Below are positions 1-6,928 of a stretch of DNA of 64,000 bases, piece by piece. Numbering within the stretch: position 1 is the first letter of the stretch; each line of letters starts with the position of its first letter. The notes beneath the pieces were generated by a model. That model was not told the origin of the DNA, made no database searches, and saw only the letters and a list, made by a program, of their open reading frames with translations. Where the stretch lies: NCBI RefSeq assembly GCF_000699445.3, contig NC_067196.1:25189116-25253115 (forward strand), read 5' to 3'. The DNA comes from Schistosoma haematobium (taxonomy: Eukaryota; Platyhelminthes; Trematoda; Strigeidida; Schistosomatidae). The position numbers and the translations under genes are program-made.

Positions 1-3000
1 CTGCTGCTGCTGCTGCTGCTGCTGCTTTGCTGCTGCTGCTGCTGCTGCTGCTGCTGCTGCTGCTGCTGCTGCTGCTGCTGCTGCTGCTGCTGCTGCTGCT
101 GCTGCTGCTGCTGCTGCTGCTGCTGCTGCTGCTGCTGCTGCTGCTGCTGCTGCTGCTGCTGCTGCTGCTGCTGCTGCTGCTGCTGCTGCTGCTGCTGCTG
201 CTGCTGCTGCTGCTGCTGCTGCTGCTGCTGCTGCTGCTGCTGCTGCTGCTGCTGCTGCTGCTGCTGCTGCTGCTGCTGCTGCTGCTGCTGCTGCTGCTGC
301 TGCTGCTGCTGCTGCTGCTGCTGCTGCTGCTGCTGCTGCTGCTGCTGCTGCTGCTGCTGCTGCTGCTGCTGCTGCTGCTGCTGCTGCTGCTGCTGCTGCT
401 GCTGCTGCTGCTGCTGCTGCTGCTGCTGCTGCTGCTGCTGCTGCTGCTGCTGCTGCTGCTGCTGCTGCTGCTGCTGCTGCTGCTGCTGCTGCTGCTGCTG
501 CTGCTGCTGCTGCTGCTGCTGCTGCTGCTGCTGCTGCTGCTGCTGCTGCTGCTGCTGCTGCTGCTGCTGCTGCTGCTGCTGCTGCTGCTGCTGCTGCTGC
601 TGCTGCTGCTGCTGCTGCTGCTGCTGCTGCTGCTGCTGCTGCTGCTGCTGCTGCTGCTGCTGCTGCTGCTGCTGCTGCTGCTGCTGCTGCTGCTGCTGCT
701 GCTGCTGCTGCTGCTGCTGCTGCTGCTGCTGCTGCTGCTGCTGCTGCTGCTGCTGCTGCTGCTGCTGCTGCTGCTGCTGCTGCTGCTGCTGCTGCTGCTG
801 CTGCTGCTGCTGCTGCTGCTGCTGCTGCTGCTGCTGCTGCTGCTGCTGCTGCTGCTGCTGCTGCTGCTGCTGCTGCTGCTGCTGCTGCTGCTGCTGCTGC
901 TGCTGCTGCTGCTGCTGCTGCTGCTGCTGCTGCTGCTGCTGCTGCTGCTGCTGCTGCTGCTGCTGCTGCTGCTGCTGCTGCTGCTGCTGCTGCTGCTGCT
1001 GCTGCTGCTGCTGCTGCTGCTGCTGCTGCTGCTGCTGCTGCTGCTGCTGCTGCTGCTGCTGCTGCTGCTGCTGCTGCTGCTGCTGCTGCTGCTGCTGCTG
1101 CTGCTGCTGCTGCTGCTGCTGCTGCTGCTGCTGCTGCTGCTGCTGCTGCTGCTGCTGCTGCTGCTGCTGCTGCTGCTGCTGCTGCTGCTGCTGCTTCTGC
1201 TGCTGCTGCTGCTGCTGCTGCTGCTGCTGCTGCTGCTGCTGCTGCTGCTGCTGCTGCTGCTGCTGCTGCTGCTGCTGCTGCTGCTGCTGCTGCTGCTGCT
1301 GCTGCTGCTGCTGCTGCTGCTGCTGCTGCTGCTGCTGCTGCTGCTGCTGCTGCTGCTGCTGCTGCTGCTGCTGCTGCTGCTGCTGCTGCTGCTGCTTTGC
1401 TGCTGCTGCTGCTGCTGCTGCTGCTGCTGCTGCTGCTGCTGCTGCTGCTGCTGCTGCTGCTGCTGCTGCTGCTGCTGCTGCTGCTGCTGCTGCTGCTGCT
1501 GCTGCTGCTGCTGCTGCTGCTGCTGCTGCTGCTGCTGCTGCTGCTGCTGCTGCTGCTGCTGCTGCTGCTGCTGCTGCTGCTGCTGCTGCTGCTGCTGCTG
1601 CTGCTGCTGCTGCTGCTGCTGCTGCTGCTGCTGCTGCTGCTGCTGCTGCTGCTGCTGCTGCTGCTGCTGCTGCTGCTGCTGCTGCTGCTGCTGCTGCTGC
1701 TGCTGCTGCTGCTGCTGCTGCTGCTGCTGCTGCTGCTGCTGCTGCTGCTGCTGCTGCTGCTGCTGCTGCTGCTGCTGCTGCTGCTGCTGCTGCTGCTGCT
1801 GCTGCTGCTGCTGCTGCTGCTGCTGCTGCTGCTGCTGCTGCTGCTGCTGCTGCTGCTGCTGCTGCTGCTGCTGCTGCTGCTGCTGCTGCTGCTGCTGCTG
1901 CTGCTGCTGCTGCTGCTGCTGCTGCTGCTGCTGCTGCTGCTGCTGCTGCTGCTGCTGCTGCTGCTGCTGCTGCTGCTGCTGCTGCTGCTGCTGCTGCTGC
2001 TGCTGCTGCTGCTGCTGCTGCTGCTGCTGCTGCTGCTGCTGCTGCTGCTGCTGCTGCTGCTGCTGCTGCTGCTGCTGCTGCTGCTGCTGCTGCTGCTGCT
2101 GCTGCTGCTGCTGCTGCTGCTGCTGCTGCTGCTGCTGCTGCTGCTGCTGCTGCTGCTGCTGCTGCTGCTGCTGCTGCTGCTGCTGCTGCTGCTGCTGCTG
2201 CTGCTGCTGCTGCTGCTGCTGCTGCTGCTGCTGCTGCTGCTGCTGCTGCTGCTGCTGCTGCTGCTGCTGCTGCTGCTGCTGCTGCTGCTGCTGCTGCTGC
2301 TGCTGCTGCTGCTGCTGCTGCTGCTGCTGCTGCTGCTGCTGCTGCTGCTGCTGCTGCTGCTGCTGCTGCTGCTGCTGCTGCTGCTGCTGCTGCTGCTGCT
2401 GCTGCTGCTGCTGCTGCTGCTGCTGCTGCTGCTGCTGCTGCTGCTGCTGCTGCTGCTGCTGCTGCTGCTGCTGCTGCTGCTGCTGCTGCTGCTGCTGCTG
2501 CTGCTGCTGCTGCTGCTGCTGCTGCTGCTGCTGCTGCTGCTGCTGCTGCTGCTGCTGCTGCTGCTGCTGCTGCTGCTGCTGCTGCTGCTGCTGCTGCTGC
2601 TGCTGCTGCTGCTGCTGCTGCTGCTGCTGCTGCTGCTGCTGCTGCTGCTGCTGCTGCTGCTGCTGCTGCTGCTGCTGCTGCTGCTGCTGCTGCTGCTGCT
2701 GCTGCTGCTGCTGCTGCTGCTGCTGCTGCTGCTGCTGCTGCTGCTGCTGCTGCTGCTGCTGCTGCTGCTGCTGCTGCTGCTGCTGCTGCTGCTGCTGCTG
2801 CTGCTGCTGCTGCTGCTGCTGCTGCTGCTGCTGCTGCTGCTGCTGCTGCTGCTGCTGCTGCTGCTGCTGCTGCTGCTGCTGCTGCTGCTGCTGCTGCTGC
2901 TGCTGCTGCTGCTGCTGCTGCTGCTGCTGCTGCTGCTGCTGCTGCTGCTGCTGCTGCTGCTGCTGCTGCTGCTGCTGCTGCTGCTGCTGCTGCTGCTGCT

Positions 3001-6880: not shown

Positions 6881-6928
6881 CTACTACTACTACTACTACT
6901 ACTACTACTACTACTACTACTACTACTA
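6881..6928. repeat. (CTA)16 block directly joined to the CTG tract
   Basis: Sixteen perfect CTA units continue the register of the CTG tract with no spacer, then unique AT-rich DNA starts. A G-to-A change in one unit followed by expansion would explain the switch. Confidence 0.98.

What the first reader, a model, noticed from the sequence alone, without database searches (positions are those of the whole stretch)
1..6928. About 2,290-unit CTG/CAG tract, probably inside an intron of an axonemal dynein gene
Seen: 6.88 kb of CTG (CAG on the gene strand) broken by only five identical CTTTG units and one CTT, capped by (CTA)16. Dynein exon 22 ends at 8632 with a good donor in the middle of a conserved block, and the remaining C-terminal exons are absent from 1-8631. 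Inference: the tract lies within that intron, or separates a truncated gene from its 3' end. CTG/CAG tracts of this size are known in expansion disorders, where they form hairpins, stall replication and, as RNA, sequester splicing factors. A germline tract this long in a worm gene would be remarkable.
Basis: partly seen in the sequence, partly recalled or inferred. Interest (0 to 1): 0.88.

Follow-up and report, generated by a model that had tools for sequence, protein, structure and literature searches.

The report
Giant triplet array in dynein intron
A 9.3-kilobase run of one three-letter repeat sits inside an intron of a flagellar motor gene of the blood fluke Schistosoma haematobium, but it is one of dozens like it in this nanopore assembly, and its CTG lettering may be a misreading of CTA.

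Summary
The tract is as described, and larger than the window shows: (CTA)16-(CTG)3072-(CTA)16, 9,348 bp with 8 small interruptions, running 2.4 kb past the left edge. The intron inference holds: the DNAH7-like gene's next exon lies left of the array, in phase, so the array fills 9.35 kb of an 11,646-bp intron. Scaffold lengths identify the assembly as Schistosoma haematobium Shae.V3, built from nanopore reads and finished with short reads. It is not unique: CTG arrays beside CTA occur at about 47 places. Of 67 measured CTA caps 62 are 24-240 bp, whatever the length of the core. In 40 arrays sampled blind to the interior, 36 short ones are nearly all CTA and the four of at least 200 bp hold CTG, though pure CTA arrays up to 348 bp exist. 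Leading reading: the giant array is real, but most CTG letters are nanopore miscalls of CTA, corrected only near the edges. Against it, long pure CTA runs survive elsewhere and one CTG array lacks caps. A genuine 3,072-unit CTG array is not excluded. No reads were examined.

The parts
1..6880 (-). CTG core as assembled (CAG on the gene strand): 2,284 CTG units with 6 interruptions; continues 2,372 bp left of the window
6881..6928 (-). right-hand cap (CTA)16 (TAG on the gene strand); an equal (CTA)16 cap ends the array on the left (L009:7581-7628)
25..29 (.). interruption CTTTG
1194..1196 (.). interruption CTT
1395..1399 (.). interruption CTTTG
3212..3216 (.). interruption CTTTG
5956..5960 (.). 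interruption CTTTG
6630..6634 (.). interruption CTTTG
1..8631 (-). window part of one 11,646-bp intron of the DNAH7-like gene (donor 8632|8631; acceptor at L009:6986|6985, left of the window)
   Evidence: read from sequence, splicing not tested
8632..10257 (-). DNAH7-like exon, 542 codons: end of AAA_9, Dynein_heavy D6, first 51 columns of AAA_lid_11; query residues 2-541 align to DNAH7 residues 3086-3625 of 4024
11575..58782 (-). further exons of the same gene in order (AAA_9, stalk MT, AAA_8, AAA_lid_1, AAA_7, AAA lid, AAA_5, AAA_6, DHC_N2), located only as open frames; the AAA_5 piece and the first MT piece are just below Pfam's cut-off

Best explanation
Shown: in Shae.V3 an intron of a DNAH7-like dynein gene of Schistosoma haematobium holds a 9.35-kb, about 3,100-unit triplet array written as (CTA)16-(CTG)3072-(CTA)16, and CTG arrays beside CTA occur at about 47 places. 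Inferred: the giant array is real and grew as a CTA/TAG microsatellite by slippage and unequal exchange, with no function other than lengthening the intron. Also inferred: most of the CTG core is a repeat-calling error. CTA units deep in the array were read as CTG from R9.4.1 signal (A taken for G in the same register), and only the outer 50-200 bp, within reach of anchored short reads or of flanking context, carry the right letters. My split: real long array about 0.85; intron placement 0.95; core mainly CTA misread as CTG about 0.58.
For: Source: C2 = 93,306,550 bp, C4 = 48,328,128 and C6 = 22,148,653 equal the longest scaffold, N50 and N90 of Shae.V3; 163 scaffolds. The paper cited for the reads used R9.4.1, Guppy 3.1.5 and pooled adults; assembly by Canu, Medaka, Pilon, HyPo. 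Edges: 62 of 67 measured caps are 24-240 bp, median 114, while the stretches measured hold from 19 to 3,072 CTG units; the junction patterns that found most of them rule out caps under 12 bp on the matched side but not long ones. Blind sample, first 40 of 172 arrays with a (CTA)9(ATA)4 edge: 36 arrays of up to 105 bp have 483 CTA to 12 CTG; the 4 of at least 200 bp all have 20% CTG or more. Interruptions more than 250 bp inside are mostly frame-breaking (48 of 58) against 12 of 23 within 100 bp of an edge (Fisher P 0.01), as expected of uncorrected nanopore consensus; the same kinds recur at unlinked loci. Precedent: CCCTAA read as CCCTGG on nanopores, with alike current profiles.
Against: Long CTA arrays are often called CTA in the same assembly: 32,984 overlapping exact (CTA)50 matches and 31,074 of (CTA)66, so at most about 119 pure runs of 65 units or more, averaging about 325 units if that many. 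L023 has a pure (CTA)795 and a (CTA)334 beside CTG, and L049 a (CTA)184. A general CTA-to-CTG error should have converted these, so the error would have to depend on read strand or locus, which I could not test. Of 6 places with (CTA)36ATAATA, three are pure CTA arrays of 153, 231 and 348 bp. L019 has CTG up to its unique left flank and only a 6-bp cap on the right, so some long CTG arrays look genuine; L090 also begins with CTG at its left edge. Interruption density differs between arrays (8 in 3,072 units here, none in the 1,675-unit run of L013), which is not what uniform noise predicts. Nine ends of six scaffolds showed no telomere-type tandem repeats, so they gave no positive control for the error. 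The current profiles of (CTA)n and (CTG)n were not compared here.
Confidence: 0.58

Rival explanations
1. The letters are right: CTG units that arose inside CTA microsatellites expanded, by hairpin-assisted slippage, to hundreds or thousands of copies at dozens of loci, leaving the old CTA array as caps. Here a germline (CTG)3072 lies in a dynein intron and is transcribed as (CAG)3072.
For: Long CTA runs elsewhere are not converted. CAG and CUG RNA fold more stably per unit than UAG and CUA. Interruptions differ between loci.
Against: Caps cluster at 24-240 bp at 62 of 67 ends, although pure CTA runs elsewhere reach hundreds of units. Deep interruptions are mostly frame-breaking, and the same kinds occur at unlinked loci. 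In 14 of the 16 arrays with both caps measured the caps together exceed 105 bp, longer than 36 of the 40 arrays of the blind sample, so the parent arrays would have been unusual.
Confidence: 0.35
2. Length artefact (can hold with either lettering, so the odds do not sum to one): the array is much shorter in the worm and was lengthened by assembly or by gap filling with a corrected read.
For: Gaps were closed with long reads (TGS-GapCloser), and one CTG array (L024) still abuts at least 4,379 N, so such arrays can fall at gaps. DNA came from pooled worms.
Against: Many arrays of graded sizes exist, and nanopore reads routinely exceed 10 kb. I saw no reads either way.
Confidence: 0.12
3. The array separates a truncated gene from unrelated sequence.
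For: Only that the C-terminal exons are missing from window 1-8631.
Against: The next pieces of AAA_lid_11 are found in order and on the same strand in L009, the first in phase after an AG.
Confidence: 0.02

Closest known systems
Intronic CTG18.1 expansion of human TCF4 (Fuchs dystrophy); DMPK CTG expansion of myotonic dystrophy
   Same: As written, a non-coding CTG/CAG tract in a transcribed gene, and like TCF4 within an intron (starts of abstracts in the listing; DMPK from a passage and recall).
   Different: About 47 places instead of one, CTA caps, gene sense is CAG, no known phenotype, and the CTG letters are unverified.
Nanopore repeat-calling errors at telomeres (Tan et al. 2022, PMC9414165)
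   Same: An A-to-G change within a fixed repeat register, producing long wrong repeats (CCCTAA to CCCTGG); passages and part 2 of section 4 seen.
   Different: There shown from reads and current models on hexamers; here inferred from assembly anatomy on a trimer, and other long CTA arrays are read as CTA.
Compound microsatellites
   Same: Neighbouring blocks that differ by one letter: TAA-CTA-CTG here, TAC-TAA at window 42489-42545.
   Different: Core blocks of up to 3,072 units and a narrow cap scale.

Membership tests
Pathogenic-type CTG/CAG repeat expansion | tract of hundreds of CTG/CAG units in the genome sequence | tested here: met
   3,072 units as assembled
Pathogenic-type CTG/CAG repeat expansion | letters confirmed by an independent method | tested here: inconclusive
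   assembly anatomy argues both ways; no reads available
Pathogenic-type CTG/CAG repeat expansion | length instability between individuals or tissues | not testable with these tools
   one assembly only
Pathogenic-type CTG/CAG repeat expansion | RNA foci, splicing-factor capture or loss of expression | not testable with these tools
   no RNA data
Nanopore repeat-calling error | sequence built from nanopore reads of the affected pore type | tested here: met
   nanopore contigs; R9.4.1 and Guppy 3.1.5 in the paper cited there for the reads
Nanopore repeat-calling error | true and false repeat share a current profile | not tested
   k-mer current table not held
Nanopore repeat-calling error | call differs between strands of reads or from another platform | not testable with these tools
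   no reads
Nanopore repeat-calling error | wrong repeat wherever the true repeat is long (a demand of mine; the telomere paper reports mixtures) | tested here: not met
   long pure CTA runs persist; so I claim that it may work like such an error, not that it is a proven case
DNAH7 (inner-arm dynein heavy chain) | best match among dyneins of solved structure, and domain order DHC_N2 to AAA_lid_11 | tested here: met
   7e-268 to DNAH7, next family DNAH12 at 8.7e-236 (one exon only); Pfam order. The C-terminal Dynein_C exons were not located

The most novel reading that the evidence does not exclude
Schistosoma haematobium carries dozens of genuine germline CTG/CAG arrays of hundreds to over 3,000 units, capped by CTA, at least one inside an intron of a gene for flagellar dynein, and tolerates the (CAG)n RNA that in people would be toxic: a natural animal model of tolerated giant triplet expansion.
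Probability: 0.33. Interest if true: 0.88.

Novelty: new member of a known kind. Interest (0 to 1): 0.5.

Why it matters
If the CTG letters are real, a human parasite holds dozens of disease-sized CTG/CAG tracts in its germline, and how it tolerates them becomes a testable question. If they are wrong, a published reference genome contains at least tens of kilobases of a false repeat (14,987 CTG units deep inside the stretches read) that could mislead studies of repeats, polyglutamine and markers, and the telomere type of nanopore error extends to triplet arrays. Either way kilobase-scale triplet arrays (CTA and ATC as well as CTG) appear common in this assembly, and cheap tests separate the readings.

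Tried and rejected
First version of the artefact idea: every long CTA array is converted beyond short-read reach. Rejected as a general rule by the (CTA)50 and (CTA)66 counts and by L023; kept only in a weaker, locus-dependent form.

Five identical CTTTG as a sign of segmental copying within the tract: rejected as evidence, because the same unit occurs in unlinked arrays.

Telomere control (error repeats at chromosome ends): nine 1-kb ends of scaffolds C1-C6 gave no telomere arrays, and the genome-wide telomere searches did not complete.

Literature: 10 of 10 searches used. Searches were aimed at CTG/CAG or triplet arrays in Schistosoma; the rows listed (1 of 1, 20 of 252, 10 of 200, 7 of 8) showed no such report by title and start of abstract. 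That covers only listed rows of this open-licence library. Motif counts of S. haematobium microsatellites are named as a supplement of PMC3874762 (passages), which I could not open.

Coding role: the tract is open in all six frames inside the window except for TAG stops of the CTA cap in one minus frame, but that follows from the repeat and, in an intron, is no evidence of a protein.

Wanted but did not complete: a count of (CTG)50, a list of long CTA runs beside ATA, telomere repeats. So the total of CTG units genome-wide is not known; 14,987 CTG lie more than 250 bp inside in the 74 stretches examined, a set partly chosen for CTG, in which an edge outside the stretch was counted as far away. 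Four left junctions and 60 of the 100 listed edges were not fetched; 72 more edges were not listed.

Full report
What is there. The window opens with 6,880 bp of CTG units (2,284 CTG, five CTTTG, one CTT), then (CTA)16 to 6928. The genome search places the window at C2:25,189,116-25,253,115 of a 400,267,458-bp, 163-contig assembly. The stretch to the left continues the tract for 2,372 bp and ends in another (CTA)16. The whole array reads A16 G294 CTTG G13 CTTG G489 CTTTG G388 CTT G66 CTTTG G604 CTTTG G913 CTTTG G223 CTTTG G82 A16, where A is CTA and G is CTG: 9,348 bp and 3,072 CTG.

Which genome. C2 is 93,306,550 bp, C4 48,328,128 and C6 22,148,653. These equal the longest scaffold, N50 and N90 of Schistosoma haematobium Shae.V3, which also has 163 scaffolds (PMC8846543, outline and passages seen). 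The paper gives 400,271,889 bp, 4,431 more than the copy held here. Contigs came from nanopore reads (Canu, Medaka), then scaffolding, Pilon, long-read gap closing and HyPo. The paper cited there for the nanopore data used R9.4.1 cells, Guppy 3.1.5 and a pool of adult worms (PMC7918261, passages seen); that these are the same reads is my inference.

The gene. The open frame at 10257-8632 (minus) matches DNAH7 over 540 residues (E 7e-268, next family DNAH12 at 8.7e-236). Frames up to 58.8 kb carry the dynein domains in order (the AAA_5 piece and the first MT piece are just below Pfam's cut-off). The exon stops at 8632 before GTTAGT with AAA_lid_11 at column 51 of 140. On the far side of the array, L009:6985-6770 (minus) begins after an AG with DVQYEALRYLTGECNYGG and covers columns 55-115; another frame covers 115-140 (25.2 bits, cut-off 31). 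So the array lies in one intron of 11,646 bp. Splicing was not tested, and the last exons (Dynein_C) were not located.

Not a single expansion. An exact (CTG)9(CTA)4 junction occurs 30 times and (CTA)4(CTG)9 30 times. Merged by position these are about 47 places (28 from the first search, 19 more from the second). All 30 right-hand junctions and 26 of 30 left-hand ones were read; the left ends at C5:858635, C5:1531780, C5:41408094 and C8:2407847 were not. Most of those read show CTA edges and CTG inside, in the same register; some are finely mixed (for example L030, L034, L037, L100), and L019 has almost no cap.

The scale of the caps. In 33 stretches (31 arrays, since L039 and L095 are second ends of L013 and L038) 48 caps could be measured; 43 are 46-238 bp; the other five are 0 and 6 bp (L019), 0 (left side of L090) and 1,313 and 2,385 bp (L023). 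Of 20 further left ends, 19 could be closed and all 19 are 24-152 bp to the first triple CTG; one (L100) ran off the fetched stretch. Together 62 of 67 are 24-240 bp, median 114. The junction patterns need four CTA, so they rule out caps under 12 bp on the matched side, but not long ones. In 16 arrays with both sides measured the two caps are alike (median ratio 0.68; a uniform random break reaches this in 0.24% of 20,000 simulations).

A sample blind to the interior. A (CTA)9(ATA)4 edge occurs 172 times; 100 were listed and the first 40, all on C1 and C2, were fetched. Thirty-six arrays of up to 105 bp have 483 CTA and 12 CTG; the 4 arrays of at least 200 bp all have 20% CTG or more. Two of the short arrays (L086, L087) also pass 20%. 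(CTA)36ATAATA occurs 6 times: one is L015 with a CTG core, one is the end of the L038 array with scattered CTG (L095), one of 422 bp has a mixed core between caps of about 40 CTA, and three of 153, 231 and 348 bp are pure CTA. So in these samples CTG-rich interiors go with arrays above about 350-400 bp; L090 (201 bp) is an exception.

Interruptions. More than 250 bp inside, 48 of 58 interruptions break the frame; within 100 bp of an edge 12 of 23 do (P 0.01; 74 stretches). The class is by length, so a triple CT counts as in-frame. CTTTG and CTTG recur in unlinked arrays. This looks like consensus not corrected by short reads, but locus-specific mutation is not excluded.

Results against miscalling. 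(CTA)50 has 11,575 forward and 21,409 reverse matches, (CTA)66 10,742 and 20,332: at most about 119 pure CTA runs of 65 units or more, mean about 325 units if so many. L023 has (CTA)795. The mirror control (ATC)50 has 25,131 and 17,497 matches, so giant ATC arrays are common too. L019 is a CTG array with no cap on its left. Interruptions are unevenly spread over arrays. Hence the error, if it is one, is not universal; dependence on strand depth is my guess. The precedent is the reading of CCCTAA as CCCTGG, with strand-specific rates (PMC9414165).

Verdict. The array and its intron are real features of this assembly. That its core is truly CTG is not shown; I put about 0.58 on misread CTA and 0.35 on real CTG, unchanged after re-checking. 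No function is proposed beyond an inert, long, intronic simple repeat; if CTG is real, the transcript would hold (CAG)3072, whose predicted folding is stronger than that of UAG repeats (-1.21 against -0.93 kcal/mol per unit at 100 units).

Noticed in passing
window 10550-10595 (-) and 30205-30249 (+): Two type I hammerhead ribozymes (Rfam, 45.3 and 54.4 bits); the first overlaps an interspersed repeat with other copies in the window.
   Followed up: no
window 56918-56995 (-): The Rfam mir-3492 match (77.8 bits) lies antisense within a 244-codon open frame at 56729-57463 that looks like the end of a retrotransposon protein (recalled resemblance), so this 'microRNA family' may be a repeat.
   Followed up: no
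whole genome, pattern control: (ATC)50 matches 42,628 times and (ATC)66 39,415 times (overlapping): giant ATC/GAT arrays are even more abundant than CTA arrays.
   Followed up: no
L024 (C2:76617985-76627984): A run of at least 4,379 N directly abuts a CTG array of 216 units, so an assembly gap falls in or beside such an array.
   Followed up: partly
L040-L048, nine ends of scaffolds C1-C6: None of the nine 1-kb ends read carries a telomere-type tandem repeat.
   Followed up: partly
L009:1484-3010 (-): A 509-codon reverse transcriptase frame (RVT_1) lies left of the next dynein exons; its end resembles a GIY-YIG domain as in Penelope-like elements (recalled).
   Followed up: no
window 19333-20110 and 37775-38560: Two copies of a mobile element, 98-99% identical over the two 300-nt stretches compared, between exons of the dynein gene; the frame at 37070-38026 matches RVT_1. 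Probably recent insertions.
   Followed up: no
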